Assembly: GCA_039105265.1 (NCBI GenBank)
Contig: JAPFFF010000010.1
Coordinates: 5,394,001 to 5,458,000 of the forward strand
Direction: 5' to 3'
Length of the DNA: 64,000 bases
DNA from: Tritrichomonas musculus
Lineage: Eukaryota > Parabasalia > Tritrichomonadida > Tritrichomonadidae
Below the pieces are notes generated by a model that did not search any database, had not been told where the DNA came from, and worked only from the letters and a program-made list of their open reading frames with translations. The translations under genes and the position numbers were made by a program. Below are positions 1,522-47,964 of the stretch, in pieces; positions within the stretch are counted from its first letter, which is position 1, and each line of letters opens with the position of its first letter.

Positions 1522-4500
1522 ATGAATTTTAGCAAATATAATATTGAGGAAGCAGATATCGTTATTCCAAAACGCTCAAAAACTCCAATCAAAAGGCCTC
1601 AAACAGCTGCAAATACTGGTCGTCAAACAAAAGGACTTTTTGCTACAAAAAATATTGATAGAGACGTTCAAGCATTTGACGTTGTTGATCCAGCTGGCGA
1701 TAGCGGTGATAAAATTCTTCATGCATGTAGTCCTCGCTTACTTGCAATTAAGACAAAAGCAACTCGATTAAAACAAGAACGTAAACCAACAATACCAACT
1801 CGAGGGCGTCCTAAGACAGCGCTAAACCCTAGTGCTGCTCAAATGATGCCATCATTACTCAGCAATCACAAACTCGCTCAACTTCGCGATCCAATACCTG
1901 AAAGTACAATTCAAGCGTATCAAAAAAATATTGATAACGAAAAACTCTCGATAGGATTCACGGAAGATCCTCTCGCATACTTTTCGAAACGCAAAGATGG
2001 TCGAGGTCATCGTTTTATATATTTAAATTACAGTGGAGATCGACGTAATCCGAATTTTAATCCTTATGATTTAACAAAAGTACCTTTTGCAGAGGTTAAT
2101 CCCGAATATTTTACGATGTCAGCCACAGGTGTTACCCATATTCATCCCAATGGTGCTACTGAAAATATTTCACTTGATCGATGGGCCAATGAATCATCAC
2201 ATTTTCTAACATTAAAAAAGCTCAAACTATTCAAATTTTATTTTATATGGAAACCCTTTCGTATTTGGAAGAATTTTGTTATGCGACAACGATATAATCA
2301 GATTACAGATAAAGTGATGAGATTTTCATTCATGAACAATTTTGTATTCTATCAAACTTCTATTGACTTTTTGAAAGATACGCCAGATTCGATTATCATT
2401 AAATATCTACTTGCCTTTCAATCACAGAAAAAGTTCACCATAGAAGAATTCCATCAAGCGGAAACCGATAACCGCCAAATTTTGAGTGAAGCATACAATG
2501 AGTATTTAGATTCAATTATCGCATCACTTGTTCAATTAGATATTGATATTCGTGATCCAGGGCGACTTGTTGTTCAAGATTCTGAATTTTCAGAGATAAA
2601 AAGACGAAATCCAAATTTGGGCCAGTTAAAGATACTTGAGAGGAAGAAGCATGCGGAAAGTATGAGAAGGAATGATATAGTGCAAAAGGAGGTCTATGCA
2701 TTTTGTGACTTTATAAGACTGACTGACATGCTGATCATTGAATCATTGTCAAAAAGTTGCACTGAATCATGGAAGATTGCTGAAGACAACGTTTCTTCTG
2801 ACATGGCTTCTATTTTCCAGATTGAAGTTGAGTTCAATCATGAAGGAAAAGTTGTTTTCCAGCCTTCTTTAGATGAACTTGTTCGAATAACAAAAGAATC
2901 ATTGCATGGTTCTTTAGACTATCTTGACCAACTGCCTCGATTAATCATGTCTTCCAAACTTCGAACAAGATTGAGAGAAAACATTCCAACATTGAATCAA
3001 CTCTTTGAGAATGGTCCAAGTTTTAATGAATTCATTAGTTGTAATGAAATCATTCCACAAGTTGAAGATCGAATCATTGAAGTAATAACAACTTCATATC
3101 ATGATGCTGAAGTCATTTCTCAAGTCTTTACTGACTTCTACTCAATTTATAAGACTGGAATGACTTGGGACCCTTCTTCTTATCTCCATGAACGAGGTGG
3201 AAAATCGGAATTGATTGAATTATTCACTGTTGAAGATGGTTGTCCTTTCTTATCTTTCGATCCATCTAAAGAATTGATTGTTATTTTTGATGAAGTTAGT
3301 AGTGACATTGCTAAATTTACTAAAGATCAAAACAAACTTACTCAATTTCGTGCTTGCACAGTTCGTGGTGCTTTATACATTGATTCACGAAAAATTCGTG
3401 CAACACTTGGCCCGATTCCAACACGATGTATTAATGATATTCAATCATTAATAAAAGATTTAACACAGAAGAAAACAGATAAAATTACTTCTATAATGAA
3501 AGCTTGTACAAGAAAGTTTAATCATGAACCAACAAATTTAGAATCTTATGTAAAATTTTGTGATTTTATTGATAAAACACAGAAACTTGTTCCTTTTATT
3601 AGTGCTGAAATTTGTTCTGTTGATGAAATGTATGATCTTCTTCAATTGTTCCCTAATAAGCAAGATCCACAACAAGAATCAACAAATGCTTTACATTCTA
3701 ATTTCACTTCTTTCAAAGCTGATATAAAAACAGCAGTTGGACTTAAAGAAGTTAATTCTGATAAATATTTATTTGTACTTCAACAAGAATTAAGAAAATA
3801 TGATAGAAAACTTCAGAAATATAAAGATATTGTAACTGCTTATCCTTCAACAATTCGTCAAACTGACATTGATAATTTACTTCCTGCAACTATTCGTGTT
3901 AAAACAAAGATAATTAAACTTGAACCTAAAATTAATGATTTATTAAAATGGGAAGAAATTTTAAATGTTAAATTAAATGATTTTAAAATATATAATATTG
4001 TGAAAGTTGACGCTGATTTAATGGAAAATGTGTTTAGATCTGTTTCTAAATGGAAAGAAATTAATAAAGAAATAACTTCTGTTCCTTTCTCATCAATTGA
4101 CATGCCGTTATTTAAAGAAGATTTAATGAAGCTTGAAAGCGATGTAAAATCATTAAAAGAGAAAAATACATCTGATCAAAATCCATTAATTGAAGAATTA
4201 ACTGCAAATTTGGATGGAATTGTTCCGTTTATCGTTCCATTAGAACAATTGTCATCAGGAAAGATGCAAATTCAACATTGGAATCGACTTTTTGAGGAGT
4301 GTGGGCAACCTTATGCTTATTATGCTCAAATTAAAATTGCAGAGTTATTAAACTTTGGAATTTTGAAAGATTTCGATAAAATTGCTCGTATTACTGGTAC
4401 TTCACATGGCGAGTCACAACTTGAGAATGAGTTTAATAACCTTTTGTCACATTGGAAAGATGTTTCGTTACCTTTGATGACAACAAGAATTCGTTCTGAA

Positions 4501-7500
4501 GATTCTTTGGTACTTGGATCATTGAATCAAACATTTGAAGAAATTGGTGACACTCAAATTGAGCTTTACAACATGCTTCAAAATCGTTATGTTCAAGGAA
4601 TTCGTGAACAAGTTTTAAAGCTTAGTAATGAACTTGAAAATATTGCTGAAATTTTGTCTGCTTGGGAAGTTTTTCAATCAAATTGGTTGATACTTTCACC
4701 TGTTTTTGCAACCGACGAAATCAAGTCTTTACTTCCTCAACAAACAAACAAGTTCATGATTGTTCGAAAACGTTGGATTTCACTAATAAAGCACACGTTA
4801 GAAAATCCAAAATTATTTAATGTTGTCACTTTTCCATCATTGTTTGAAATGCTGACAGAAAACAACAAAACACTGGAAATTTTGCTGTCATCACTTGTCA
4901 AATTCGTTGATATAAAAAGAGAGAACATGCCACGACTTTTCTTTTTAAGTAATGATGAAGTTCTTCAATTAATATCGACGAATGATTTTGCTGTCTTTAA
5001 TAAACATATTTCGAAGATATTTATGAATGTTCGCGGCTTTGATTCAAGAGCGAGTGAGACTGAATCGAATGAGAATGATTTGACAATTATCGGAGAAAAT
5101 GACAAAAGTACAGCTCAAGATTTCTCCAAATTAAAAGTTTATGGGATCATTAATGATGATGGTGACTCACTTTCATTTGATAATATTGTGAATTGTGAAG
5201 GACAAGTTGATGAATGGGTTCCGAATATTTTCAAAGAAATCAAATCTTCATTTCGATCCAATTTGGCAGCTTCTTTAGCGAAGTATCAATCAGGAAACAT
5301 GACCGATTGGGTAATGGCATATAGTTCATTCATATGCATTTTAACTCTTCAAATTACATTCAGTAGAGATACAGATGATAATTTTCATAATATTGAAAAT
5401 AATGCTCGTGTTTTCGCTAATTATGAAAATGTTATTCAACAACGAATTCGTGACATGTGTGCTGCAATGATGTCACCATTGGCACCGAATGAACTTTTGA
5501 AATTATCTTCTGTTGTTTCATTATTGAATTATCATCTTTATCAAACTCGTTTATTATCTGAAAAATATGCTTTTTATTCGCAAAAAATTAATTGGTCAAA
5601 TCATCTTCGTTTAATGTTTAATTTACAAAATTCTTCTCTTCATGTTTTATTTGGTGAAAATCAAGTTGAACATGGTTATGAATTTTTTGGTAGTGCACTT
5701 CAATACATTCATACACCATCATCTGAAAGATTAATTGTAAATACTTGTAATTCTTTATTTAATAATAATTTCCCTCTTCTTGTTGGCTCAAATGGAATTA
5801 GAAGGAAACAATTGTTAACTTATATTGCTGCCAATTTTGGTAATTTTATTTATTTTGCTTCTTCTTTCCCTGACTATTCATTCAATATTATTTCGAGATT
5901 ATTTACTGGTGCTGCACTTTCGGGTTGTTGGCTTTGTTTTGTTAATATTCAAAATCAAACACATTCTAATTTATCATTCATTTATGAAATGTTAAGGAAT
6001 TTTTCGTCTACTTTGAATTCGGGTGGAATTAGAATGAATATTAATTCGAAAATTATTGAGATTAAAAATACATGTCGATTTTTAATGACATCTGATTCAT
6101 GTTTTCTTGAAAATAATGATACTGAAATTCCACCACAACTTCGTTCTTTATTGAAACCAATTGCTTGTTCTGCGCCTGATTTAAGATTGATTGCTGAAAT
6201 CAAATTAATTTCATTTGGTTTTAAATCGACAAAACATTTCTCTGTTAAAATAACGTCACTTTTGTCAACAATTTCTGAATCTTATGAGTATTTACATTGC
6301 AAAGAACAAATGAAATTATTAACACATCTTCTTGAAAATGCCCGTGATTATCTTCGACAATTAATGCATTCAAAAGGAGTTTCATTTGTTAATTATTACG
6401 AATCAGCACGAACAGCGGAAGAATATGCAATAACTCGTTCTTTTTATGAAGAATTTATTCATAATGTTAAAGAAGAACATATTGAATCATTCTTTGAACT
6501 TCTTTATTCAACATTTCATGTTTTTGATACATTTGAAACATTTAAAAATAATCTTTTAAATTCGAATTTCTTTGCTGATGAAATTGCTTCTTCTTTAATT
6601 CGTGAAGAAGTTTCTAAATTTACTTCAAATGAATACTATATTAATCAAACAATTAACTTGTTTAAATTATTGATGAATTATTCGTGCATCATTATTTGTG
6701 GTGAATCTTATAGTGGCAAATCTTACATTGTTGAACTTTTATCTAAAGCTTTTGAAACTTTATCTAAAAATCCAGATGCACTTAATAAATTCAATTTAAT
6801 TGCATCAATTAAATTACTTGATTTGTATATGAATATCGATACAACAAGTGGAATATTTGGCACTTCAATTGATGATGTGAATGTCGGTTGTATTCAATTA
6901 AGTGGTCATTTAAATTCATATCTGACAAATTTGTGTAAATATAAAAGAACTCATCATTGCTTGTTGAGATTTAATGGTCCTGTTACAACAACCTTTTCAA
7001 CTTATCTTCTTGAGATTTTGTCTGGCGGAGGAAAAGATAAAGGAAGACTTAGCTCGCTTGACACTTTTTCATTTGATCAACAATTCCACATTTTAATTGA
7101 GACAGATTCATTGAATTGTATATCACCGTCACTTTTTTCTATTTGTGGACTTTTGTACATGTCAAACCACATGAAACCAATTGAAAACATTTTCGAAGAT
7201 CGAAAAATTTCACTTAAAAAAGAATCCTTTATTGATTCATCATATCAATATCTTCAAGAAACATTCACTGAGATAATTCCAAAAGTCTTGGATTACATAA
7301 TAAGCATAACCAATAAATTTATATCTCATGTTTTAAGAGGTAAAGAATATTTAACAGTAAGTTTACCTCGAAAATGCTTTGAATATGCACTTTCAATCAT
7401 TAAAGCGACAAGTATTGATCAAAACAACAAAATTCTTTTGAAATCAGTTTTAATTGTCTCTTTTTACACTGTTTATTCAAGTGTTCTTAACAACAAAGAA

Positions 7501-10500
7501 AAAGTTGAATTTGAAAAATGGCTGAGAGTCACTTTTTCAATAAATGTTCCTAATGATTGGACTGGATTCAACGTTCCTAATCATTTCTGGGACATTTATC
7601 CACGTCCTTCATTACAATCAGTTCGATTGTTTAAAGGAGCTTTCGTTCCAGTTGATTTTTCGCTTCTAAATGAAAAGAAGCCATTGTTAAAGAAGACTGA
7701 TAGGGTAGTTTCAACAAAGTTCATATCGGACTTATCAATTCCTATACCTCAATATCTACCACTTCTTTATCAATCGATGGTTCTTTCGAGAAACATGCAG
7801 CACATCTTTTTACACGGTCCGAAAAAGAGTGGAAAAAGTCATTTTCTCAACTTTTTCTTTTCACAAAATTCTGAATTTATTCCTGTTTACGTGCCAAATG
7901 GACCACATTCAACCAACTCGACAATGTCGACATTTATCTCGACACATTGCTCAGTTATAAAGAAGAAGTATTTCATGCTTCCAGAGACCAAAATATTTGC
8001 TCTTGTCTTCGAGAATGTTGATCCATCGAATTTGACTGTTGTTGAATTCATAAGAATGATTGTTTCAAGTCGAACAATTGCAAATGTTTCCCCAAATGAT
8101 TCAAATTTCTTAGAAGTAATTGATTTAAGAAATTACTTTGTTATCGTCACTGGTGAGAAAATTGAAGAGTTTCCGGCTCGTTTTCTTTCAATGTTTACTC
8201 CAATCCATTTAATTGAGCCTGCTACATCGACAAAGAAACACATTTTCATGAACATTTCATCTTTCTTTGGACTTGAAGAAAAATTTGCTGATAAATGTTT
8301 TTCGTTAATTGAACAAACAGCTCCAACTAACTTTAATATTTATCAACCACTTCAATCATTATGTTTTCTAGATGAAAAAGAAAACAAAGATGAAAATTCA
8401 ACAAAAGTTCTTCTTTCTATTTTATTGAATGAATTGAATTTCGGTTATTTCAACAATAGAAAAAGAACGAATGAAGAAATTGAGAAATTTAACAACTTGT
8501 TTAAATCTTTGTTTCATTCTGAAGTCGATTCATTTTGGAAACTTAGAAAATTAAACATTTTGATGACAAATGACATGAAATCATTCAAGATTCAATCAGA
8601 AGAACTCGATTATGAAGACATGAAGATTGATTTGGAAGAAAAGTTGTCATTTTACAATACAAAAAGTAAAGCTAAACTTCATCTTTCTATTTCCAATGCT
8701 TTGATTGATCATGTCTTGTTATTACAAAGAGCAGTTTGTTATCCTGGTGGAAGTTGCTTTTTAATTTCAAAGCCTGGTTTGAATCGAAAAAGTTTAACAA
8801 AATTTGTTTGTTCGATAAAAGACATGAAATTTATAGATTTGAGTTTGAATGTTGATTTTGATTCGACTGTTCGTGATTCTTTATTTGATATTATATCTTC
8901 CTCACAACAATTTGTTTTATTCTTTAGAGCAACGAATGAGAATATTTGTCAATTGAAACTTTTGATTGATTTCATTGTGAATCATAATTTTTCATACTTT
9001 TTCAATGAAGAAGATTTAATTAATTGTTATTTAAAGTTGAATCATGTTCAAGAACAGAGTCAAGAACAAAACCTGTCTTCTTTATACCAATTAATTGATT
9101 TGTTTTCTAATAAGATTCATGTTGTTATATCAATTAATGAAGAAGACGAAGAAACAATGAAATTTGTGCATGTTTTTGAAAATTCATCAATTTATTGTAT
9201 CAAATTTGAAGTAAATGAAATCGATCAATTCTCTGATATTGCAACAGGAATGCTTTCTGATTTGGATACAATTATTGATGTACCTGAAAAGCTTCCTTAT
9301 TTATTGTCTCGAATTCATTTGTATATAAAAGAAGAATTCGATGACTTGCCTTTGAATTACTTCTATGATTTAATTTACGAATTTACAAATAAATTAAAAT
9401 TGAGTAAAGAAGACATCATTCATAAGCATAAACAAACAGACATCGCTTTACATTTCTTTGAAGATATGAGTAAAAAGATGATTTGGCTTGATAAAGAAAT
9501 AACTGAATTAAAGCCGAAGATTGATTCACTTCAATCATCGACGAAAGAAATGGAAACGAAATTTTCTGAAAACAAAGAAAAAATTTCAAATCGTTCGAAT
9601 GAACTTCAAGAAGAAGAGATGCTTAAAACAGCAGAAATCAAGAAAATGCAAGACGATTTAGCACAAAACAAAAAGGAATTAATTGAAACTGAACAAAATG
9701 TTGAATCTAATTTACTTAAGGTTAAATCATTACAAGAAAGAGACATTAAAATAATTCAATTATCTGCTGAATCACCAACACCTAAATACAAAGCATTTTT
9801 TGAGCTTCTTTGCATTTTCGTTGAGAATCCGCCAACATATGAACCATTCGGACTTGCAATGGCCACTGATAACAGCATTGTTTCATCATTAACAAATCGC
9901 ATTGCATACAAAATCATTCCGAATGAAGTTTTGGCTGCTGCAAAGCAAAACATTCAAGCAAATAATTTCACACATAGTGAAATGGAAGCAATTGCACCTG
10001 CTCTTGGCATTCTTTATGATTGGATCCATTCAATCTATCATTATGCAAATGTCAAACAAAAGATAAAAGCATTACAAAAAGATTTGGATGATAAACAAAC
10101 CGAATATCATAAATATATGGATGAAACAAAGAATGATCGAGAGTCAATTGCTAAGCTTTCTGCTGAACTTGAAGCGGAAATGGCAAAAATAAGTCAATCT
10201 GAATCAGAAAGAGTTTCACTTGAGAAAGAATTTGATGAAAAGCAATTTAAATTACGAAATGTTTGTGCATTAATGAAAAACACTACAAAAATCATTGATA
10301 AATGGAAACGTGATTCTACACAATTCAACGATGACATGAAATTAATGATTGGCAACACCGTTGTCTATGCTTCTTACTTGGTTTATGGAGGAATGCTGAA
10401 TCCTTCACAAAAAACAAGTCTGATGACATTTCTATCAAACGAAATGGAAAATAATTTGATATCTTCAACAAGTGACAGTTTCATGTATTATGTAGCTTCT

Positions 10501-13500
10501 CAACTTGAAATTCATGATAATATTGAGATTCGTTCTGCACATTCGTTTGTTTCAACCAAATCAAGTTCGAACTTTTATCAACCATCGAAAGAAAGAAAAA
10601 CGAGTTTGATCAATGATAAAAAGAAGAAGAAAAATCAACAAGTTTCACATGAAACAATGCGTGATTTTCATCATATGAGAACTGTTCGAAGAACACCATT
10701 ACTTATTGATCCCGATCGAATAGTTTATCCCTTCTTTTGCAGTCATTGTGTTCAAGAAAGATTAATGAAAATATCTTTCATTGCTTCTTCTTTTAAAGAA
10801 AAATTATTTAAAGCAATTGAGTTTGGTTTTACAATTGTTGTAACCGACGTTGATTGGTTGAATCCATTTCTTGAAAATGTACTTTCAACGCTTCTTTTCT
10901 CAACAACGAATAGTTATGAATCAGTTGCAATTACAATTGAAGGCAAAACTTTAATGAAGCATCGTGATTTTAGATTGGTCATGTTTACTTCTAAAAGGTC
11001 AATTAAAGAAATTCCTCTTGATTTACTTTGTCGTGTGACAATTATTGATTCAAGTTGTTCTTCTTTAACTTCATTAAATGATGCGATTTCAACTGCTTTT
11101 GTCAACTTTTTCGATCCTGAAATGGTACCAAGAATGGCTTCTGTTAGTTCATCAGAGACGCATTATCGAGTTGAAATGCAACGATATGAACAACAAATGT
11201 TCAATTTAATTAGTGAGATCAAGAAACAACTTGAAAAAGCACCTCAAAAAGAAGATGATGATGAAGAAGAGAATGAAAAATACGACTTTTTGAAAGATGA
11301 AGAATTGCTTGGTGAACTTTTACAATCAAAAGAATTATTCTTCACGATCATGAATGTTTCTGTTGATTTCAACACCATTAAAAACGAGCACAAAATGACA
11401 GTTGAACCTTTCTTAAAGCATATTGAATTTTGTAATACAATTTGGGAAGCTGCAAGTCGTTATTTGCCATTGATTTCACCAAATTACGTTTTAACATTTG
11501 ATCGTTTCTTGTCACTTGTTAAAACAGGAATTTCTTCATCCGGAGTGAAGCCAGGATTGATTCAAGATGAAGGTCATGTTCAGCTTCATAATTCATTATT
11601 AAATGTGCTAATGAAAGGCCTTCTCCAGTCATTGACGTTTGATGAATCAATCTTTCTCATGTTCATCTCTTCTTACTTGAAAGGCAAAAAAGAAGGAAAA
11701 TATCATGACGAAGACTTGGAAGCGATTGTTGAGCATTTTCATGAAGAGTTTCATTCAAGAATTGATACTCATCTTGATGATGTAAAGAGCAACACTAACA
11801 ACAACGAAATTAAAGAAGATGATTTCGAGTTATTAAAGTTTGCTAACGTTGCTGATTTCTATAATCACGTGTCATCATTCATTATGAGTCAATTTTCGAA
11901 TGATTTTGCAAACTTTTTGCCTTTCTTTCAAATTGAATCTTTCTTTTCAGGCTCTGCAATGACTCCTGTTTTGATTCAAATGAAAGATTACGTTGATTCA
12001 ACTTCTCTCTTACTTGAACATTTCGTTCAGACGAGAAACCGATTTGATTCCTTTGAATTGTACCCACTTTTTGATAACGAAGAAGCCCTTAAAAAAGTCC
12101 TTTCTAACGTTATTAACGCTGTTTCTAAAGGAAAGTGGATTGCACTACAATACACGAAAGCTTCAAAAAACGTTGCACAATGTATAGCAAACATTTATTA
12201 CCACATTTTGGCCAACTCTGAAAAAGTTTCAACTAATTTCAGACTGGTCGTTTTGGCCCACACTACTCAATTTTTACCAGTCGACTTTTTGATAGCATCC
12301 GTCCGAATAAGCATTGAAAATAATTATCCATCCATTCGTCACCAGATGCTCCAGGTTTACCAGCACCACTCGACAAGCATCAGGAGTTCAACAAATCCAA
12401 AATTGATGAAAAAAGTGGCATACGTTATTGTCCTTTTGTATGCAATTCTGAACTTCTCATCGTTTGTCAAACCGCTCGGCTTGTACGAACACAACATCAT
12501 CAACGAAATGAGCGTGAAAGAGGCAATCGATTACATCCGCCAAACAATCGATTCACACGTGATGGTCGACCTTCCTTTCCGCAACATTCGCGAGACAATC
12601 CAGGACTTTTTCTACGCTTCTAAAGTCATCGATACATTCGATAGAAGAAAGGCAAGATCGCTCATTTTCTCGCTGATAACGCCTGAAATGATAGAAGAGA
12701 ATTTCACCTTCTTGGACCCTTCGTCTGACGAAGTCGACCGTTGGACGATCCCACCGGACATGCCGATAACAAACTACATGCACATCATTGAAAAAATTCC
12801 GGTCTTCACGTCATGTGATGTGATCCTGATGAGCAGGGGAACGTCGCAGCCGATTCTCAATTGGAACCTCTCTCGATGGATAGCGAGACCGTTTATTTGC
12901 CTTCACAAAAAGTTGAAGGTGAAGTCAGATAAAAGTGGAGGTGCCACTTTCGAGTCCTTGACAAAAATGATGCTGAATTCAATGCCTAAGAAAATTTATT
13001 TGACTGGTAAAATGGTCACTTCACCTATCTTTCAATTTTTTATGAATGAAATAACGGTCTTTAATGATGCTATTGATTCAATCTGGGACTCATTTTATAG
13101 AAATGAAAATAATTCAGTTTTTGAGAGCCTAACCGCTCTAACCGTTCCCGAAGAGTGGAGAGAAAAAGTCGGTTATTCAGGCACAATGAATTTGCAACGG
13201 TTTTTGGGCATTTTGAACCAAAAAGAAAAATTCTATAGGACATGTTATGCGAAAAACGGTTTATCGAGTAAAGAAGTTGACTGCAAACTGATAACGAACG
13301 TTAAAGGCCTTCTTCTTTCATTCCTCCATCAGATGTCATTTGAAAAGAACCTTCCTGTAGATTCAATGGTTTACGAATTCACTTTTTCAGAGGTACCCTC
13401 ACCACAATTAATGACACTGACCCTGACGAACGTTTATTTGGTATCCGGCTTCTATGACGTTCTCACAAAGAGACTCATTCGAATTGGAAGTGGCGCCCCG

Positions 13501-13767
13501 CCGTTCACAAAGATGCCTCCTCTTGCCTGCACAGTTGTGAAGAGGGCATCAAAGGTCGTCCGCGCTTTCCAGTGCCCGCTCTTCTTGTCGGTGCCGCTGA
13601 GAGACAGCAGAGACGAGTTCATGCTGAAGAGGCAGAAGGAGAGAATCGACGGAGAGGTCAATAATTTGGTCTATTACGTGCCAATACAGTCTGACCTAAC
13701 TGACAAGCAGTGCGTGATTGAGGGAACTTGCCTAGTTTGCCACATGCCTGACGTTTTTGAACCATGA
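1522..13767 (+). CDS. Dynein heavy chain, axonemal type, with degenerate AAA1 site
   Basis: A 4081-residue flagellar dynein heavy chain. The N-terminal ~1300 residues carry tail and linker signatures, including an early FNPYDL...VTHIHP...W...E block seen in axonemal heavy chains. The AAA ring follows. AAA1 should read GPAGTGKT and CFDEFNR but here reads GSNGIRRKQ (1422-1430) and CFVNIQN (1472-1478), losing the Walker A lysine and both Walker B acids. AAA2 (GESYSGKS, 1727-1734) and AAA3 (GPKKSGKS, 2099-2106) keep intact P-loops; AAA4 is degenerate (SKPGLNRKS, 2416-2424). The stalk coiled coils lie near 2640-2740 and 2850-2930 with a microtubule-binding domain between. AAA5 (PLLIDPDR), AAA6 and a full C-terminal domain are present. 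The frame is unbroken, so it is not a simple pseudogene. ATG at 1522 is the first in the frame. Family known; loss of motor ATPase activity inferred. Confidence 0.93.
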   Translation: MNFSKYNIEEADIVIPKRSKTPIKRPQTAANTGRQTKGLFATKNIDRDVQAFDVVDPAGDSGDKILHACSPRLLAIKTKATRLKQERKPTIPTRGRPKTALNPSAAQMMPSLLSNHKLAQLRDPIPESTIQAYQKNIDNEKLSIGFTEDPLAYFSKRKDGRGHRFIYLNYSGDRRNPNFNPYDLTKVPFAEVNPEYFTMSATGVTHIHPNGATENISLDRWANESSHFLTLKKLKLFKFYFIWKPFRIWKNFVMRQRYNQITDKVMRFSFMNNFVFYQTSIDFLKDTPDSIIIKYLLAFQSQKKFTIEEFHQAETDNRQILSEAYNEYLDSIIASLVQLDIDIRDPGRLVVQDSEFSEIKRRNPNLGQLKILERKKHAESMRRNDIVQKEVYAFCDFIRLTDMLIIESLSKSCTESWKIAEDNVSSDMASIFQIEVEFNHEGKVVFQPSLDELVRITKESLHGSLDYLDQLPRLIMSSKLRTRLRENIPTLNQLFENGPSFNEFISCNEIIPQVEDRIIEVITTSYHDAEVISQVFTDFYSIYKTGMTWDPSSYLHERGGKSELIELFTVEDGCPFLSFDPSKELIVIFDEVSSDIAKFTKDQNKLTQFRACTVRGALYIDSRKIRATLGPIPTRCINDIQSLIKDLTQKKTDKITSIMKACTRKFNHEPTNLESYVKFCDFIDKTQKLVPFISAEICSVDEMYDLLQLFPNKQDPQQESTNALHSNFTSFKADIKTAVGLKEVNSDKYLFVLQQELRKYDRKLQKYKDIVTAYPSTIRQTDIDNLLPATIRVKTKIIKLEPKINDLLKWEEILNVKLNDFKIYNIVKVDADLMENVFRSVSKWKEINKEITSVPFSSIDMPLFKEDLMKLESDVKSLKEKNTSDQNPLIEELTANLDGIVPFIVPLEQLSSGKMQIQHWNRLFEECGQPYAYYAQIKIAELLNFGILKDFDKIARITGTSHGESQLENEFNNLLSHWKDVSLPLMTTRIRSEDSLVLGSLNQTFEEIGDTQIELYNMLQNRYVQGIREQVLKLSNELENIAEILSAWEVFQSNWLILSPVFATDEIKSLLPQQTNKFMIVRKRWISLIKHTLENPKLFNVVTFPSLFEMLTENNKTLEILLSSLVKFVDIKRENMPRLFFLSNDEVLQLISTNDFAVFNKHISKIFMNVRGFDSRASETESNENDLTIIGENDKSTAQDFSKLKVYGIINDDGDSLSFDNIVNCEGQVDEWVPNIFKEIKSSFRSNLAASLAKYQSGNMTDWVMAYSSFICILTLQITFSRDTDDNFHNIENNARVFANYENVIQQRIRDMCAAMMSPLAPNELLKLSSVVSLLNYHLYQTRLLSEKYAFYSQKINWSNHLRLMFNLQNSSLHVLFGENQVEHGYEFFGSALQYIHTPSSERLIVNTCNSLFNNNFPLLVGSNGIRRKQLLTYIAANFGNFIYFASSFPDYSFNIISRLFTGAALSGCWLCFVNIQNQTHSNLSFIYEMLRNFSSTLNSGGIRMNINSKIIEIKNTCRFLMTSDSCFLENNDTEIPPQLRSLLKPIACSAPDLRLIAEIKLISFGFKSTKHFSVKITSLLSTISESYEYLHCKEQMKLLTHLLENARDYLRQLMHSKGVSFVNYYESARTAEEYAITRSFYEEFIHNVKEEHIESFFELLYSTFHVFDTFETFKNNLLNSNFFADEIASSLIREEVSKFTSNEYYINQTINLFKLLMNYSCIIICGESYSGKSYIVELLSKAFETLSKNPDALNKFNLIASIKLLDLYMNIDTTSGIFGTSIDDVNVGCIQLSGHLNSYLTNLCKYKRTHHCLLRFNGPVTTTFSTYLLEILSGGGKDKGRLSSLDTFSFDQQFHILIETDSLNCISPSLFSICGLLYMSNHMKPIENIFEDRKISLKKESFIDSSYQYLQETFTEIIPKVLDYIISITNKFISHVLRGKEYLTVSLPRKCFEYALSIIKATSIDQNNKILLKSVLIVSFYTVYSSVLNNKEKVEFEKWLRVTFSINVPNDWTGFNVPNHFWDIYPRPSLQSVRLFKGAFVPVDFSLLNEKKPLLKKTDRVVSTKFISDLSIPIPQYLPLLYQSMVLSRNMQHIFLHGPKKSGKSHFLNFFFSQNSEFIPVYVPNGPHSTNSTMSTFISTHCSVIKKKYFMLPETKIFALVFENVDPSNLTVVEFIRMIVSSRTIANVSPNDSNFLEVIDLRNYFVIVTGEKIEEFPARFLSMFTPIHLIEPATSTKKHIFMNISSFFGLEEKFADKCFSLIEQTAPTNFNIYQPLQSLCFLDEKENKDENSTKVLLSILLNELNFGYFNNRKRTNEEIEKFNNLFKSLFHSEVDSFWKLRKLNILMTNDMKSFKIQSEELDYEDMKIDLEEKLSFYNTKSKAKLHLSISNALIDHVLLLQRAVCYPGGSCFLISKPGLNRKSLTKFVCSIKDMKFIDLSLNVDFDSTVRDSLFDIISSSQQFVLFFRATNENICQLKLLIDFIVNHNFSYFFNEEDLINCYLKLNHVQEQSQEQNLSSLYQLIDLFSNKIHVVISINEEDEETMKFVHVFENSSIYCIKFEVNEIDQFSDIATGMLSDLDTIIDVPEKLPYLLSRIHLYIKEEFDDLPLNYFYDLIYEFTNKLKLSKEDIIHKHKQTDIALHFFEDMSKKMIWLDKEITELKPKIDSLQSSTKEMETKFSENKEKISNRSNELQEEEMLKTAEIKKMQDDLAQNKKELIETEQNVESNLLKVKSLQERDIKIIQLSAESPTPKYKAFFELLCIFVENPPTYEPFGLAMATDNSIVSSLTNRIAYKIIPNEVLAAAKQNIQANNFTHSEMEAIAPALGILYDWIHSIYHYANVKQKIKALQKDLDDKQTEYHKYMDETKNDRESIAKLSAELEAEMAKISQSESERVSLEKEFDEKQFKLRNVCALMKNTTKIIDKWKRDSTQFNDDMKLMIGNTVVYASYLVYGGMLNPSQKTSLMTFLSNEMENNLISSTSDSFMYYVASQLEIHDNIEIRSAHSFVSTKSSSNFYQPSKERKTSLINDKKKKKNQQVSHETMRDFHHMRTVRRTPLLIDPDRIVYPFFCSHCVQERLMKISFIASSFKEKLFKAIEFGFTIVVTDVDWLNPFLENVLSTLLFSTTNSYESVAITIEGKTLMKHRDFRLVMFTSKRSIKEIPLDLLCRVTIIDSSCSSLTSLNDAISTAFVNFFDPEMVPRMASVSSSETHYRVEMQRYEQQMFNLISEIKKQLEKAPQKEDDDEEENEKYDFLKDEELLGELLQSKELFFTIMNVSVDFNTIKNEHKMTVEPFLKHIEFCNTIWEAASRYLPLISPNYVLTFDRFLSLVKTGISSSGVKPGLIQDEGHVQLHNSLLNVLMKGLLQSLTFDESIFLMFISSYLKGKKEGKYHDEDLEAIVEHFHEEFHSRIDTHLDDVKSNTNNNEIKEDDFELLKFANVADFYNHVSSFIMSQFSNDFANFLPFFQIESFFSGSAMTPVLIQMKDYVDSTSLLLEHFVQTRNRFDSFELYPLFDNEEALKKVLSNVINAVSKGKWIALQYTKASKNVAQCIANIYYHILANSEKVSTNFRLVVLAHTTQFLPVDFLIASVRISIENNYPSIRHQMLQVYQHHSTSIRSSTNPKLMKKVAYVIVLLYAILNFSSFVKPLGLYEHNIINEMSVKEAIDYIRQTIDSHVMVDLPFRNIRETIQDFFYASKVIDTFDRRKARSLIFSLITPEMIEENFTFLDPSSDEVDRWTIPPDMPITNYMHIIEKIPVFTSCDVILMSRGTSQPILNWNLSRWIARPFICLHKKLKVKSDKSGGATFESLTKMMLNSMPKKIYLTGKMVTSPIFQFFMNEITVFNDAIDSIWDSFYRNENNSVFESLTALTVPEEWREKVGYSGTMNLQRFLGILNQKEKFYRTCYAKNGLSSKEVDCKLITNVKGLLLSFLHQMSFEKNLPVDSMVYEFTFSEVPSPQLMTLTLTNVYLVSGFYDVLTKRLIRIGSGAPPFTKMPPLACTVVKRASKVVRAFQCPLFLSVPLRDSRDEFMLKRQKERIDGEVNNLVYYVPIQSDLTDKQCVIEGTCLVCHMPDVFEP

Positions 13768-14366: not shown

Positions 14367-17300
14367 ATGTTTGATAATCTTATAGAAAGCATTAATGCGC
14401 AACTTCCCCTTACTGATGAATCAAAAGAATTAATAAAAGCTGTCGCTAAAACGCCAAATCTAAGTTATCCTGGCATAGATCAAAAAACTCAATCTTCAAA
14501 TACCGATAAAAACAGATTACCGACTCAGGAATTAGATAAAGCTTCTCTTCTTCGTCTTATTCGAACATCTTTTCTATGTTCTCCAGATAATAAGAATTAT
14601 GCAGAATGCAAATTAATTAAAGACAGTATAATTCAACAAAACCACCTTCAAAAAATTTTATCCCAATTGTCTGATTTTCAATTCATAGTTGGTGTTGAAA
14701 CTCTTATTGCTCTTCAAGCACATAATTCAGAAGCTGTTTTATCAGATGAATCTTATCAAACCGAATTAGTCAAAACCGCAAATTCTGCTCCGAAGCACCT
14801 CCGACCATTGTATGGCTTTGCACTTTTGCAACTTTTGGGATTTCGACAATTATATAAAAATCCAACAAACCGCGTCAAGAAACTACCAAAAATTGCCCAA
14901 GAAGCCTTAACACGTAAAATTTACTCACCAATTTTATTTGCAAGCTTTTTAGATGCACAAGAATCAGAAAATACATTAAAAATACTTAAGCAATTTGATG
15001 TTTTTGCGATTATATTAAACAAATGGATTGAGCCCATGACCAAAATTCTCCTCGAAGAAGTGAAACGAATTTGCATTAAAGAATTATTTTATTTAATAAG
15101 TCGTTTCCTACGTCTTTATTATTCAAAATCAATATTATCGCAATCAATACAAACTTTTTCAAGCCGAATACTTCCATTAATGTCCCGAATTGTTTTACAT
15201 TATCCGAAATTATTCAATAAATTTTTAGATGACTGTAATATATTTGCTAACAAAAATCTAACAGAAAATCGATTTCCCTCAGTTTTACACTTTTTATCTT
15301 GCTCTTGTAATTCCAAGCAAAATGCACTTACTGTATTGAAAAAATTAACCAATAGTCAAAATCGATCTGAGCCACTAATGAAGCAATTCTTTGATTGTCT
15401 TAAAGAAGCACATGATGAACTTGTTGTTGAGAATGTTAGCAGTAGTTCCAAGTCCGCCCTGTTCCTTCTAAAAAGTTTATTTAAATATCTCTCAAATAAT
15501 TTGAAGGAAAAATTGGTCATGATGTTCAACGGCTCAGAAATCGACACTCCAGCTGAATCTTTATCGTCATTTCTCTGGGACTTTATGGACAATTCAGAAT
15601 TAGCTCCAAGTGCAGCTAAATGCCTCTTTCACCTTTCCTCTCTTTATCCGGACTCAGTCTCGCGCTATTTTGACAACCCTTCCACTTTCATCAGCATAGA
15701 AGGCATGATGGAGAAGAATGCCAAGATAGCCAAGTCCTTTGTCAAGATAGCACGCAACATGGTATCATTTACGTTTTGCAGAAGCAATGACAAAAGCAAA
15801 GAGATACCAAAATTTGCGAAATTTTTAGTTTCTGACTATTTCACAAGTTCCATATTCAAAAAGTTCGAAAGACGATCAAAGCGATGGTCAACATTGACCT
15901 CTATCTTAGAACTAGCTCTTGATATAGTTTATTGCGATCTTGACTTTTGCGAGGAGCTTCCGAACAATGAAAATTTTGTCCGTGGATTGATTTCTATCGT
16001 TCATCAAACTGCCAGCATTTTAAGTGAGCCGCCGACGGTTATAATTGAATCAGATTCAGTCCGAATTGACAGTGACAATTTACGGTACATTATTCAATTC
16101 GACAGCATAGCGATGACGTTAATGATACGTCTAATTACGTGCAATTTGATGAATTTGAATTCAAAATTATCGTTCATGTGCACCTCCTTTTTTTCTGACA
16201 ATTTCAGTGACGCGTCTTCATTATTCACAACTTTTGTATCGTTCCTTCAGTTGACTCATCCATTGTCTCCTCAACTTCGCGTTCATGCCGTTAAGATGCT
16301 CGATCTGATGTGCGAGATAGCGTCACGAATACCCGGCACAAACGTTGATTCATTCTATCCACACGAAAGTCAGCGTGTTTTGAAAGGATTGATTTCAACG
16401 AATCTTTTCAAATCGAACTGCATTGACCAAGTAATCACACAAATTGACTTCATTGCACATACACTATCATCTCAGCTTCCTTTTGCTTATTCATTTGTTC
16501 ATCATCTTGGCTCTTCTTTCGTGTTTGCTGCAACTTCTTATCTTGAAGACATTGCCAAAAAGTTCCCCGATTGGCTTCTCTCTTTATCGCGTCTTCTTTC
16601 AATGATGTTTCAAAAGCTGAGCCTTGGCTCTGAAGTCATTATGCAGATAACAAGCAAGCAAGCATTTTGGTCATCTTTATGGAACATCATTAAACTAGAT
16701 CTCCCTTCAAATGACAACAATCAAGACACATGCAATTTGATTGCTGCAAAATCTGAGCTTTTGAATGTTGCCATTTTGAATAACCAGCCAATTCAGAAGG
16801 AAGTGATCGACATTCTTTTCAATCAAATACAAACAATTCTTCCGAAAAAGTTCGAGCCAATCTTCATTGATTTTAAGATCGATATGAAGAGGTTCATAAT
16901 GGTCGAATTGCATCGTATTTATGGCAAAGATTTTTACCTCGATACTGAATTATTGAGACGATATTTGGTCGACAAAGAAAATATTGTTGCCAAGGCCAAA
17001 AGTTTGAATGAGTCATGGTCAATTATTCATGCATGCACGCAGCTTTTATCAACCATTGTTAACTTGTTAAGAACAACTTCAAACGAGTCATTGATACCTC
17101 CAGTCAAAGACTCCTTAAAACTGCTCATTAACGTCCTCCGAAATGACATCTATTACGACAGCAGTACTGAAGTATTCTTCAACTTTGTTGACGTTTGTTT
17201 ATCGAACATTGATTCGCCCATAAACAACATCAGTTCTAATTTATTGCGAGGAATAACTTATTACTTAAATAAACGTCCTCTTGAGTCCACTTTTTCAATC

Positions 17301-18440
17301 ATTGCCAGATTCTTGGCGCCTTCAGAAATAGAAGAATCAGAAGAACTCATCCAAATGCTCGACCCTTGCATTAAGTTTTCTCTCGAGAATTACGCGACAT
17401 GTTCTTCGAGTGCTTTGAAATGCGCCTCTGAAATTGCATTGAAATTGTCTGACAATGACAACTGGATAGTTAAATCGCCAATAAGTGTCAATTGCTTTTT
17501 CACGTTATTGCCGACACCTCTTGGCTGTTCTGTAGTAGATTTCATGACGTTAGTTTTAATGAACAATGCAAATGCATCAACATTAGAATCGAGCGGTTTC
17601 TTTGAAAAATTTATGACAATTGGAATTTGTGAGTCAGACTCAAAATCGCCAATTTGGCCTCATATATTTGAAATGATGAGTGCTATTCCAAACGTGTCAC
17701 AAGTTCCTTATTGGTTTGTTACAACACACATTAGTAAAATAGCTTACTTTTTCAATCCTTTAACAACGACAATTTCGTCTTCAGAATTGTTGTTAAAATC
17801 AGACAACTTGATGCTTTATAAGACACAATTGTCAATAATGAAATTGCTAGCTAAAATTGCTCCTAATTTGTTGAATTTCGCGAATGCTGAAGATCCAGTT
17901 CAATATCGAATGCTTCTTGAAATTGTCTCTGAAAAATTGAGGAAAAGTTTGCTCTTCTTGAAAGAGTCTTCTCAATTGAACGTGAGTAAAGGCGGCAATA
18001 ATTTATATGACGTTGATTCTTATAATGAAAAAACATGTAATTTGCTTATTTTACATTATTGTCTCCTCTTCTTTAACTGCCTCTTCGAATTCCCTAAAGG
18101 CGATCCTCCGATAATCTTGATTAGTTCCGCCTCGTCAAATCCAATTCTCGACTTGATGGATAAAGTGGCAGACACTTTGAAAGAGATACTTGCGAATGAT
18201 GCTGGCATTTTCAACGACGTTTGTATCGAGGCTTTCGAATATGCTTTAAGAATTTATACAGCTAAAATGTTCGTCTCGGCTACATTGGAAAATGGAAGAA
18301 AGCAAATCATGGAGACAAAAAATTCACTTTTAAGATCAATCGAATCAGTTAGAAAATCTATCAAGGATTTCAATATTAAGGCTCAAGAATCTTTCGAATT
18401 GTTGGATGCAGTTAACGATTTCATTACAAATACTATATAA
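14367..18440 (+). CDS. Large helical-repeat (HEAT/armadillo-like) protein, unrecognised
   Basis: A 1357-residue protein with no motif I recognise. The whole length is leucine/serine-rich amphipathic helices with repeated short helical pairs (for example around 150-350, 640-900 and 1150-1330), no signal peptide, no clear membrane segment and no low-complexity linkers, which suggests an alpha-solenoid scaffold. The size and helix-only composition would fit large nucleoporins of the Nup188/Nup205 class, a proteasome or importin-type scaffold, or a trafficking protein; I cannot choose between them. ATG at 14367 is the first in frame and is preceded by an AT-rich spacer. Codon use matches the neighbouring genes. 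It lies 600 bases downstream of the dynein gene on the same strand with no sign of a functional link. Confidence 0.85.
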   Translation: MFDNLIESINAQLPLTDESKELIKAVAKTPNLSYPGIDQKTQSSNTDKNRLPTQELDKASLLRLIRTSFLCSPDNKNYAECKLIKDSIIQQNHLQKILSQLSDFQFIVGVETLIALQAHNSEAVLSDESYQTELVKTANSAPKHLRPLYGFALLQLLGFRQLYKNPTNRVKKLPKIAQEALTRKIYSPILFASFLDAQESENTLKILKQFDVFAIILNKWIEPMTKILLEEVKRICIKELFYLISRFLRLYYSKSILSQSIQTFSSRILPLMSRIVLHYPKLFNKFLDDCNIFANKNLTENRFPSVLHFLSCSCNSKQNALTVLKKLTNSQNRSEPLMKQFFDCLKEAHDELVVENVSSSSKSALFLLKSLFKYLSNNLKEKLVMMFNGSEIDTPAESLSSFLWDFMDNSELAPSAAKCLFHLSSLYPDSVSRYFDNPSTFISIEGMMEKNAKIAKSFVKIARNMVSFTFCRSNDKSKEIPKFAKFLVSDYFTSSIFKKFERRSKRWSTLTSILELALDIVYCDLDFCEELPNNENFVRGLISIVHQTASILSEPPTVIIESDSVRIDSDNLRYIIQFDSIAMTLMIRLITCNLMNLNSKLSFMCTSFFSDNFSDASSLFTTFVSFLQLTHPLSPQLRVHAVKMLDLMCEIASRIPGTNVDSFYPHESQRVLKGLISTNLFKSNCIDQVITQIDFIAHTLSSQLPFAYSFVHHLGSSFVFAATSYLEDIAKKFPDWLLSLSRLLSMMFQKLSLGSEVIMQITSKQAFWSSLWNIIKLDLPSNDNNQDTCNLIAAKSELLNVAILNNQPIQKEVIDILFNQIQTILPKKFEPIFIDFKIDMKRFIMVELHRIYGKDFYLDTELLRRYLVDKENIVAKAKSLNESWSIIHACTQLLSTIVNLLRTTSNESLIPPVKDSLKLLINVLRNDIYYDSSTEVFFNFVDVCLSNIDSPINNISSNLLRGITYYLNKRPLESTFSIIARFLAPSEIEESEELIQMLDPCIKFSLENYATCSSSALKCASEIALKLSDNDNWIVKSPISVNCFFTLLPTPLGCSVVDFMTLVLMNNANASTLESSGFFEKFMTIGICESDSKSPIWPHIFEMMSAIPNVSQVPYWFVTTHISKIAYFFNPLTTTISSSELLLKSDNLMLYKTQLSIMKLLAKIAPNLLNFANAEDPVQYRMLLEIVSEKLRKSLLFLKESSQLNVSKGGNNLYDVDSYNEKTCNLLILHYCLLFFNCLFEFPKGDPPIILISSASSNPILDLMDKVADTLKEILANDAGIFNDVCIEAFEYALRIYTAKMFVSATLENGRKQIMETKNSLLRSIESVRKSIKDFNIKAQESFELLDAVNDFITNTI

Positions 18441-18988: not shown

Positions 18989-20293
18989 ATGTCGGAAGTT
19001 GTTTTCCCTCTAAACCCAGATCAATATGATTTACTTTATCAAATTGGACAAGGACCATTTACAAAAGTATTTCTTGCTCGTTGTCACACAAATGGCAGAC
19101 TTATTGCAGCAAAATTAATGAATATCGATTCTTGTGAATTTAATTATGCGCTAATGAAAAAAGAAATGGTTTTTTGGCAACAATATGACAATGATCATCC
19201 AAACGTTGCAAAATTTTATGGATCATTTCTACACGAATCAACTATGTGGATTTTACAGGAATATATAGATGGAGGATCAATTTATGATATAATTCATTTT
19301 GGTTATATTCATGGTTTTAAAGGAGAACCGTTGATAGCAACTATAATTAGAGAAGTTTTACAATTTTTAGCATACTTTCACAAGAAAGAGCAAATTCATC
19401 GTCATCTTCAATCATCAAGCGTCCTTATTACATCAAAAGGCGAAGTAAAGGTAACTGATTACGGATATTCAGCAGGATTATTTGATATCGGTGATAAAAA
19501 AAACACTAGATTTATTATTCTTGGCACTGCTTGTTATACACCACCTGAATTAATAACAGATGCAGGATATAAAGAATCTCTTGATATATGGAGTCTTGGT
19601 ATCATAGCAATTGAACTAGCACATGGAATGGCACCTCATTCAGAATTAACACCAATGGAACAAATAATTGCAATAATAGGAGAAAGTCCTCCTGGTTTGC
19701 AAGACAGATATTCAGCTCAATTTCGTGATTTTGTATCGTTATGCTTACAAAAAAATCCAGCAAATAGACCAAGTGCTCTCGAGTTACTAAAGCATCCATT
19801 TATTCGAAAAGGCTTAGAATGCTCGTATATCGAAAAAGTTTTAATGAGCTCACTTCCGCCATTAGATAAAAGATTTGGTGCAATGATGGCGAACTTAGAA
19901 GCATCAAAAGTTCCATTTGCAGGACATGAAAATCCTGTTTATTTCAAGTTTGAAATCAATGATATCGAAGAGAATGGTTCACAAAATCCAGAAAATTTGG
20001 TAAAAACACAAGTTGGAAAGCTTTTCTTGACAATCAAAGAACCAAAGGTGATTCCAATTGAAGAATGCTTAAACAAATCAGAAAAAGTTCTATCTGCTCC
20101 ACCTTCACCTTCAAATGCTGACAAAATTAGACAAGAAGCGAAACAAATGTCATTGGATGACATTGTTAGTAAAGTCACAGAAATGGAAATGCAGTTAGAA
20201 ACAATAGCTATAGATAATTTCCAATTAAATCAACAAATTGGTCATTATTCAAAAGTGATTAAGGATATGAAAGAGGAGAATAAAAAGGCGTAA
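18989..20293 (+). CDS. STE20-like pseudokinase with HRH in place of HRD
   Basis: A 434-residue protein with one kinase fold at about 13-270 and a C-terminal tail ending in a coiled coil (about 385-434). The fold resembles STE20/OSR1/STRAD kinases: glycine loop IGQGPFTKV (19-27), retained VAIK-type lysine K42 in IAAK, GTACYTPPEL in place of GTxxxMAPE, and the DIWSLGIIAIELAHG helix. The catalytic aspartate is gone: HRD is HRH at 137-139, the following HLQSSSVLI lacks the loop lysine and the metal-binding asparagine, and DFG is DYG at 157-159. By family knowledge such a protein should bind partners or nucleotide but not transfer phosphate, like STRAD, which activates LKB1 allosterically. That role here is inference. 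ATG at 18989 is the first in frame. Confidence 0.88.
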   Translation: MSEVVFPLNPDQYDLLYQIGQGPFTKVFLARCHTNGRLIAAKLMNIDSCEFNYALMKKEMVFWQQYDNDHPNVAKFYGSFLHESTMWILQEYIDGGSIYDIIHFGYIHGFKGEPLIATIIREVLQFLAYFHKKEQIHRHLQSSSVLITSKGEVKVTDYGYSAGLFDIGDKKNTRFIILGTACYTPPELITDAGYKESLDIWSLGIIAIELAHGMAPHSELTPMEQIIAIIGESPPGLQDRYSAQFRDFVSLCLQKNPANRPSALELLKHPFIRKGLECSYIEKVLMSSLPPLDKRFGAMMANLEASKVPFAGHENPVYFKFEINDIEENGSQNPENLVKTQVGKLFLTIKEPKVIPIEECLNKSEKVLSAPPSPSNADKIRQEAKQMSLDDIVSKVTEMEMQLETIAIDNFQLNQQIGHYSKVIKDMKEENKKA

Positions 20294-47488: not shown

Positions 47489-47764
47489 ATGAATCAATTT
47501 AATTGGACAGATGAAGAAAAAACTACTTTTTCCAGAGAACAAATCCAGATATGTGAAATGAAAAGGCAAGGACTGAAACAAGAATATATTGAAAATACTT
47601 TTGGTCTCACACCTCAATCTATTTCAACTGCCATTTGTGCAACTCTCTCAGGAAATCGTTGGCTTCCTCATAGCGAATCAGGAGGAAATATACCTTACAT
47701 TGGAGATGTTGACACTATTATATTTAAGAAACAAATAGACGAATATGGTTTGAACCTCAAATAG
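47489..47764 (+). CDS. Short helix-turn-helix protein, probably a transposase fragment
   Basis: A 91-codon ORF from ATG at 47489. It reads as a helix-turn-helix (REQIQICEMKRQGLKQEYIE, then NTFGLTPQSISTAI) followed by a GNRWLPHSESGGNIPYI stretch. I recall the same order (helix-turn-helix, then G-x-x-W...GGxxPY, then an acidic helix) at the start of trichomonad transposase-like proteins. No DDE catalytic region follows: after the TAG another ~60 codons stay open in a different frame up to ~47963 (it contains KIHPSSFNNLKRKE) and then stop. It is probably the 5' remnant of a transposon gene; a free-standing DNA-binding protein is less likely. Confidence 0.45.
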   Translation: MNQFNWTDEEKTTFSREQIQICEMKRQGLKQEYIENTFGLTPQSISTAICATLSGNRWLPHSESGGNIPYIGDVDTIIFKKQIDEYGLNLK

Positions 47765-47964
47765 ACGAAAATAGATTAAAAATTTATGAGAAAAATTACA
47801 AAATTCATTATAATAATGTAAATCAGATTCCAAAAATCCATCCAAGTTCTTTTAATAATTTAAAAAGAAAAGAAATATCTAAAGGAAATGTTCTTTCAAA
47901 TTTTCCAAGTCTAATGAGTCCTATTAGATTCACAAGAAATGCCTTTTTAAAATGTACAATTTGA

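What the first reader, a model, noticed from the sequence alone, without database searches (positions are those of the whole stretch)
5785..5955. Dynein heavy chain with a destroyed AAA1 ATPase site in an intact 4081-codon frame
AAA1 is the site whose ATP hydrolysis drives every known dynein motor. Here Walker A reads GSNGIRRKQ (residues 1422-1430, lysine and threonine lost) and Walker B reads CFVNIQN (1472-1478, aspartate and glutamate lost), while AAA2 and AAA3 keep good P-loops. The rest of the protein, including stalk, microtubule-binding domain and C-terminal domain, is complete and the frame has no break over 12 kb, so selection keeps it. This suggests a non-motor dynein, perhaps a structural arm or brake of the flagellum or undulating membrane.
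Basis: partly seen in the sequence, partly recalled or inferred. Interest (0 to 1): 0.85.

Follow-up and report, generated by a model that had tools for sequence, protein, structure and literature searches.

The report
Dynein family with dead motor site
A trichomonad gene encodes a full-length dynein, normally a molecular motor, whose power-generating site is destroyed, and the dozens of related genes found share the loss, so these parasites seem to keep a set of dyneins as structural parts, not motors.

Summary
In detail: window 1522-13767 (+) is one open frame of 4081 codons for a dynein heavy chain whose AAA1 Walker A is GSNGIRRKQ and Walker B CFVNIQN. Orthologues with a normal AAA1, the proposed refutation, were sought and not found. 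Two searches gave 66 related clusters, the window's own record included (named: Tritrichomonas foetus 11, T. musculus 2, Trichomonas vaginalis 4; 49 unnamed). None of 66 keeps the Walker B Asp-Glu pair; 9 keep a complete Walker A, 0 sensor II, 2 sensor I. They form one clade, which falls in the inner-arm-like part of the tree. The AAA2 linker-bending motif patterns are absent too (0 of 66), and the microtubule-binding domain has moved, on average, from net positive to net negative. The AAA2 P-loop is kept in 62 of 66, and the tail is the best-conserved part, the reverse of the reference dyneins. Best reading: an expanded family of pseudo-motor dyneins kept as structural elements. Non-motor status is well supported from sequence; location and mechanical role are inferred; dN/dS could not be computed.

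The parts
1522..13767 (+). pseudo-motor dynein heavy chain, 4081 codons, no break
   Evidence: Pfam DHC_N2, AAA_6, AAA_8, AAA_lid_11 above cut-off
1822..3981 (+). tail, residues 101-820; best-conserved part of the family at residues 101-300
3982..5661 (+). linker (DHC_N2), residues 821-1380
5662..6621 (+). AAA1 module, residues 1381-1700; AAA+ fold predicted, catalytic motifs lost
5785..5811 (+). AAA1 Walker A position, GSNGIRRKQ (canonical GPAGTGKTE)
5935..5955 (+). AAA1 Walker B position, CFVNIQN (canonical CFDEFNR)
6079..6102 (+). AAA1 sensor I position, FLMTSDSC (references FITMNPGYAGR); lost
6244..6381 (+). AAA1 sensor II region; HYDxGxR motif absent
6700..6726 (+). AAA2 Walker A GESYSGKSY, intact
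6850..6921 (+). AAA2 H2-insert position; linker-bending motif lost
7018..7071 (+). AAA2 PS-I insert position; DDNK..ER motif lost
7816..7842 (+). AAA3 Walker A GPKKSGKSH, intact
8767..8793 (+). AAA4 P-loop position SKPGLNRKS, degenerate
9766..10050 (+). microtubule-binding domain, residues 2749-2843; dynein stalk/MTBD fold predicted
9979..10032 (+). last helix of the MTBD (called H6 here), EMEAIAPALGILYDWIHS; charge altered against the reference dyneins

Best explanation
The gene belongs to an expanded clade of inner-arm-like dynein heavy chains, all its named members from trichomonads, that has stopped being a motor. Shown from sequence: AAA1 has lost the groups that bind Mg-ATP and hydrolyse it, AAA2 has lost the motifs reported to bend the linker, and the microtubule-binding domain has on average lost its net positive charge. 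The AAA1 and stalk/MTBD folds (as predicted), the AAA2 P-loop, the linker and above all the tail are kept. Inferred: the tail docks the protein on the doublet microtubule like an inner arm, one ATP held at AAA2 rigidifies the ring, and the head and stalk act as a fixed strut, spacer or docking surface that adds stiffness or positioning to the axoneme but no power stroke.
For: AAA1: Walker B Asp-Glu pair 0 of 66 (Asp in 1, Glu in 7), complete Walker A 9 of 66, sensor II 0 of 66, sensor I 2 of 66, GYAGR-type motif 0 of 66; my 14 reference dyneins have each of these in 14 of 14. Wider control by pattern: intact AAA1 in 147 of 156 non-family hits and 0 of 66 family clusters, and 57 of 65 in a third search. 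AAA2: H2 pattern [TS]..W.DG 0 of 66 against 13 of 14; PS-I DDNK 0 of 66 against 10 of 14 (looser forms: W.DG 1 of 66 against 12 of 14, L..ER 1 of 66 against 11 of 14). Gleave et al. (PMC4047620, passages) say these inserts bend the linker. AAA2 P-loop 62 of 66, in ordinary dyneins a structural ATP site by the same passages. MTBD net charge mean -3.6 (range -9 to 5) against +3.1 (0 to 7). Constraint inverted: mean pairwise identity in tail 101-300 is 0.46 in the family and 0.17 in references, in AAA1 0.28 and 0.64 (63 of 66 family rows, 14 references); tail exceeds AAA1 in 12 of 14 close family pairs and 0 of 4 reference pairs. One clade, support 100, in the inner-arm-like part of a second tree. 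Folds: AAA1 model pLDDT 83.2, matching dynein entries; stalk/MTBD model pLDDT 94.6, its six matches at E 0.001 or better all dyneins.
Against: No experiment and no expression data. Some members are only partly decayed: nine keep GxxxxGK[ST] and seven keep the Walker B Glu (P0163 GPFGVGKTE / FSEIDQ has both), so ATP binding there is possible. AAA3 keeps a P-loop in 47 of 66 and AAA4 GxxxxG[KR] in 48 of 66. Axonemal location is inferred from tree and tail only. At least 11 T. foetus paralogues exceed the usual number of inner-arm kinds (recalled), so some may sit elsewhere. The family stem is very long (2.0 changes per column) and both trees are quick ones; one search warns of long branches meeting, so the exact sister is unsure. 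References span many subfamilies, so absolute identities of the two sets are not comparable, only their patterns.
Confidence: 0.62

Rival explanations
1. A non-hydrolysing regulatory head or brake: it binds microtubules or nucleotide passively through AAA2-AAA4 and resists sliding or senses strain or ATP.
For: AAA3 P-loop kept in 47 of 66 and AAA4 GxxxxG[KR] in 48 of 66; stalk and MTBD fold predicted to be kept.
Against: MTBD net charge is negative on average, and so is its last helix, so ordinary microtubule gripping is unlikely (inference); the window's own AAA4 site is degenerate.
Confidence: 0.15
2. A structural dynein of the cell-body cytoskeleton (axostyle, pelta, costa or undulating membrane) and not of the axoneme.
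For: At least 11 named T. foetus clusters, more than inner-arm kinds explain (recalled); trichomonads have unusual microtubule organelles (recalled).
Against: Placement in the inner-arm-like part of the tree and an N-terminal tail segment alignable with DNAH6 and a Chlamydomonas doublet chain.
Confidence: 0.13
3. A silent partner: the dead heavy chain pairs with an active heavy chain and positions or tunes it.
For: Tail strongly conserved, the part that would mediate assembly.
Against: The family falls among types that are single-headed elsewhere (single-headedness recalled); no partner was identified.
Confidence: 0.06
4. A slow or unconventional motor driven from another site such as AAA3.
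For: AAA3 P-loop with an acidic residue near the Walker B position in the window protein (ALVFENVDP).
Against: AAA1 motifs, AAA2 linker-bending motifs and MTBD charge are lost together; PMC4047620 (passages) says AAA3 hydrolysis residues are kept in cytoplasmic but not in axonemal dyneins.
Confidence: 0.03
5. A decaying relic or an assembly error.
For: None beyond the lost motifs.
Against: Second record with the same AAA1, 21 substitutions and no break; 63 of 66 clusters over 3800 aa; 5.5% of single-base changes would create a stop, so neutral drift to 60% identity with P0003 should have left on the order of a hundred stops (my estimate).
Confidence: 0.01

Closest known systems
Axonemal inner-arm dynein heavy chains (DNAH6 type and kin)
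   Same: Domain order, length, tail segment, linker, AAA1 and stalk/MTBD fold; DNAH6 chains are among the best PDB sequence matches and the family falls in this part of the tree
   Different: AAA1 catalytic set and AAA2 linker-bending motif patterns lost in the whole clade found, MTBD charge altered; conservation highest in the tail, not in AAA1
DNHD1 ('ghost gene' dynein-related protein of animals)
   Same: Long dynein heavy chain relative with a degraded AAA1 Walker B (LFDDTDR in P0176, LLDNADR in P0196)
   Different: Those two DNHD1-like records keep an intact AAA1 Walker A; DNHD1 is described as one orphan gene that may be becoming a pseudogene (PMC8754002, passages), not as an expanded family
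Second dynein group P0175 (T. foetus) with P0224-P0227 (unnamed), found here
   Same: Walker B changed (QE, QE, QE, SD, VD) and sensor I TMNPGYAGR lost in 5 of 5
   Different: Walker A kept in 5 of 5, DDNK in 1 of 5, W.DG in 2 of 5, the MTBD-helix lysine in 4 of 5; a separate clade

Membership tests
Dynein heavy chain superfamily | Tail, linker (DHC_N2), AAA ring, stalk with MTBD, C-terminal region in one chain | tested here: met
   Pfam DHC_N2, AAA_6, AAA_8, AAA_lid_11 above cut-off; Dynein_heavy (D6) below cut-off; no Pfam match for stalk or C-terminal domain in the window protein. AAA1 and stalk/MTBD models match dynein entries; colinear alignment to the C terminus with family members
Axonemal inner-arm dyneins | Phylogenetic placement with inner-arm chains, apart from outer-arm and cytoplasmic chains | tested here: met
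   Node of 29 rows, SH-aLRT 100, holds the family with named DNAH6, DNAH7 and DNAH14 chains and excludes DNAH17 and cytoplasmic chains (quick tree, 14 of 66 family rows; several references unnamed; DNAH1, 3, 12 not included; arm types of the names recalled)
Axonemal inner-arm dyneins | Location in the axoneme at inner-arm sites | not testable with these tools
   No localisation or proteomics tied to these proteins was found
Dynein motors | AAA1 site able to bind and hydrolyse ATP (Walker A, Walker B, sensors) | tested here: not met
   Window protein lacks all four; Walker B pair 0 of 66 in the family
Dynein motors | AAA2 H2 and PS-I motifs that bend the linker | tested here: not met
   0 of 66 for both patterns against 13 of 14 and 10 of 14 references; looser forms 1 of 66 each
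DNHD1 | Placement with DNHD1 in a tree | not tested
   DNHD1-like records scored 73 and 53 bits, family members 305 or more, but they were not put in a tree

The most novel reading that the evidence does not exclude
In trichomonads most or all single-headed inner arms are non-motor: an ancient duplicated set (this family plus the partly decayed P0175 group) has turned the inner-arm row into a static scaffold, and beating is driven by outer-arm and two-headed dyneins alone.
Probability: 0.2. Interest if true: 0.9.

Novelty: new variant of a known kind. Interest (0 to 1): 0.76.

Why it matters
AAA1 is described as the one AAA site conserved between all dyneins (PMC4047620, passage). A clade of 66 protein clusters found here, 11 of them named T. 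foetus, that lacks the AAA1 Walker B pair and the linker-bending motifs while conserving the tail suggests that a dynein can be kept for its body and not its motor. It offers a natural test of which parts of inner arms are structural, and may help explain the axoneme and undulating membrane of trichomonads.

Tried and rejected
Assembly error or pseudogene: rejected. Chance or alignment artefact: rejected, since the motif losses recur across 66 clusters and were read in two separate alignments. Orthologues with normal AAA1: none among 66. The one 'DE' that the pattern found in the Walker B stretch (1 of 66) is P0170 NIDECK, off the Walker B position.

The set of 66 is a lower bound: one search listed 120 of 577 hits, all 113, and one search scored only the 1858 candidates sharing most words. 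That the 49 unnamed clusters are trichomonad is inferred from kinship.

dN/dS: not possible. Expression: PMC11490683 and PMC10434240 (passages) list T. vaginalis dynein heavy chains A2EGW8 and A2E755, which I could not tie to this family. PMC12041511 (passages) reports low-resolution inner dynein density in T. vaginalis doublets and has no occurrence of 'heavy chain'. PMC6629372 gave no passage for the terms tried on MTBD contacts, so contact residues are not claimed. PMC7617938, PMC12338079 and PMC12637542 showed nothing on dead AAA1 in the passages for the terms tried; PMC7215579 (passages) describes AAA1 as the principal hydrolysis site. No paper on AAA1-dead trichomonad dyneins was seen in the listings of ten searches; that library lacks most subscription papers.

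Rows dropped and chosen: P0139, P0170 and P0173 (short) were left out. The 14 references and the close pairs were picked by me, and some pairs share a row; P0175 was aligned with the references but counted apart. Control misses (9 of 156): P0175, P0176, P0178, P0188, P0196, P0209, P0219, P0221, P0223. P0178 (Walker A stretch missing, FDEFNR present) and P0188 (FDEFNG) look like gene-model or pattern misses; P0219 reads FDDFH; P0221 and P0223 were not looked at further. In one search (8 of 65 missed) P0239, P0240 and P0243 carry FDEFN and are pattern misses; the others are P0224-P0227 and P0247. P0209 (Phytophthora) and P0247 (Polistes) do look AAA1-degenerate. The Mann-Whitney p values ignore relatedness, and P0139 has no last-helix segment there. 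Foldseek does not show which AAA module of the targets was matched.

Full report
Observation. The window carries one open frame of 4081 codons at 1522-13767 (+). Its translation matches Pfam DHC_N2 (E 5e-74), AAA_6 (the AAA1 model, 7e-28), AAA_8 and AAA_lid_11 above cut-off, the D6 model below cut-off, and no stalk or C-terminal model at E 0.001. Its best PDB sequence matches are DNAH6 chains and a Chlamydomonas doublet chain, mostly over residues 600-1900; later parts match weakly. Walker A of AAA1 reads GSNGIRRKQ at 5785-5811 and Walker B CFVNIQN at 5935-5955. AAA2 (GESYSGKSY) and AAA3 (GPKKSGKSH) are intact; AAA4 (SKPGLNRKS) is not. An ENA record, P0002, has the same length and differs at 21 of 4081 residues, none between 689 and 1680, so AAA1 is unlikely to be a local error.

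Relatives. A search with residues 820-1900 gave the P0002 record and 13 strong relatives, four of them named T. foetus, then a gap to animal DNAH6/14 at about 22% identity (120 of 577 hits listed). A search with a T. foetus paralogue (P0015, residues 100-1100) extended the set to 66 clusters including P0002: T. vaginalis (P0136, P0145, P0152, P0171), Tritrichomonas musculus (P0128, P0147), 11 of T. foetus in all, and 49 without a name. The lowest scores 305 bits and the next hit 166. Lengths run from 2894 to 4465 aa, and 63 of 66 exceed 3800. On tail plus linker the 66 form one side of a branch (local support 100) and the four T. vaginalis clusters fall in four different subclades that also hold T. 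foetus, so several duplications predate the split of Trichomonas and Tritrichomonas (FastTree, with a long-branch warning). With 14 of the 66, the five rows of a second group and 17 references, the clade lies with DNAH6, DNAH7 and DNAH14 chains, apart from DNAH17 and cytoplasmic chains, on a long stem (quick tree).

AAA1 loss is shared but graded. Walker B Asp-Glu: 0 of 66; Asp in 1, Glu in 7. Complete GxxxxGK[ST]: 9 of 66; GK: 43 of 66. Sensor I TMNP-type: 2 of 66; GYAGR-type: 0 of 66; sensor II HYDxGxR: 0 of 66. My 14 references have each of these in 14 of 14. A pattern control found an intact AAA1 in 147 of 156 other hits and 0 of 66 family clusters, and in 57 of 65 of a third search; most of the misses there are explained in the tried-and-rejected field. 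The nearest relatives, P0003 and P0004, keep the lysine, so the window's lysine loss is recent while the Walker B loss is clade-wide.

More of the power-stroke machinery is dismantled. Gleave et al. [quoted passage not shown] Here the H2 pattern [TS]..W.DG is in 0 of 66 (references 13 of 14) and DDNK in 0 of 66 (references 10 of 14); looser forms are in 1 of 66 each (P0131 and P0127) against 12 and 11 of 14. The AAA2 P-loop is kept in 62 of 66 and in 13 of 14 references. The microtubule-binding domain has mean net charge -3.6 (sd 2.8, range -9 to 5) against +3.1 (sd 1.8, range 0 to 7) in references, and its last helix -1.7 against +1.6 (relatedness not corrected, references chosen by me).

Constraint is inverted. 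By domain, family and reference mean pairwise identities are: tail 101-300, 0.46 and 0.17; tail 301-820, 0.34 and 0.15; linker, 0.35 and 0.33; AAA1, 0.28 and 0.64; AAA2, 0.26 and 0.40; MTBD, 0.25 and 0.32 (63 of 66 rows). The references span several subfamilies, so the pattern within each set is what counts. In close pairs tail identity exceeds AAA1 identity in 12 of 14 family pairs and 0 of 4 reference pairs, but AAA1 stays at 0.56-0.93 in the family pairs, so it seems held as a structural domain and not drifting freely. A frame in which 5.5% of single-base changes make a stop and which is 60% identical to P0003 without a break implies purifying selection; dN/dS itself was not computed.

Fold. 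AlphaFold2 on residues 1380-1700 with ten relatives gave an AAA+-like fold (mean pLDDT 83.2, pTM 0.62). The 50 Foldseek matches listed (of 349 at E 0.001 or better) are dynein entries or chains of over 2,700 residues in doublet-microtubule entries, best E 1.9e-14; which AAA module was matched is not shown. Residues 2690-2900 gave a stalk tip and MTBD (pLDDT 94.6, pTM 0.80), and the six matches at E 0.001 or better are dynein stalk, MTBD or heavy chains. The body of the motor is kept, as far as predicted; its working residues are not.

A second group. P0175 (T. foetus) and the unnamed P0224-P0227 are inner-arm-like chains with Walker A kept in 5 of 5 but Walker B changed (QE, QE, QE, SD, VD) and TMNPGYAGR lost in 5 of 5. 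No canonical single-headed chain of a named trichomonad was seen in the listings, but those searches were not exhaustive and the whole-genome tool did not complete. Hence the bold reading is stated with low probability only.

Mechanism. Shown by sequence: no catalytic AAA1, no linker-bending motifs, altered MTBD charge, kept AAA2 P-loop, kept folds (predicted), conserved tail. Inferred: tail docking at inner-arm-type sites, a ring locked by structural ATP, and a role as strut or docking surface. Location, partners and expression are open. Compared with what is known, DNHD1 of animals is the nearest described dynein relative of doubtful function that I met (PMC8754002, passages), but the two DNHD1-like records seen here keep Walker A and DNHD1 is described as one gene. 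No paper describing AAA1-dead trichomonad dyneins appeared in the listings of ten searches of the open library. I rate it a new variant of a known kind.

Noticed in passing
P0209 (Phytophthora oleae, 4902 aa) and P0247 (Polistes canadensis DNAH7-like, 3567 aa): Single records outside trichomonads whose AAA1 Walker A and B also look degenerate; could be pseudogenes, gene-model errors or convergent losses.
   Followed up: partly
P0175 (T. foetus), P0224-P0227 (unnamed): Second inner-arm-like dynein group with Walker A kept, Walker B changed and sensor I lost.
   Followed up: partly
window 50313-54548 (+): 1411-aa protein with an N-terminal kinase domain and C-terminal galactose-binding (F5/8 type C) matches, an odd combination.
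   Followed up: no
window 18989-20293, 23049-25589, 26174-28279, 40099-41811, 50313-54548, 56337-59417: Six protein-kinase genes among the ORFs scanned with Pfam, two of them with RCC1 repeats.
   Followed up: no
window 43193-45889 (-): Glycosyl hydrolase family 95-like gene, a family I recall mainly from bacteria and plants; possible lateral transfer.
   Followed up: no
window 35404-36897 (+): BspA-type leucine-rich repeat protein, a family I recall as expanded in trichomonads.
   Followed up: no
window 14367-18440 (+): 1357-aa protein just downstream of the dynein with no Pfam match.
   Followed up: no
window 46001-50000: Very AT-rich stretch (GC 0.17-0.22) without an ORF of 200 aa or more.
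   Followed up: no
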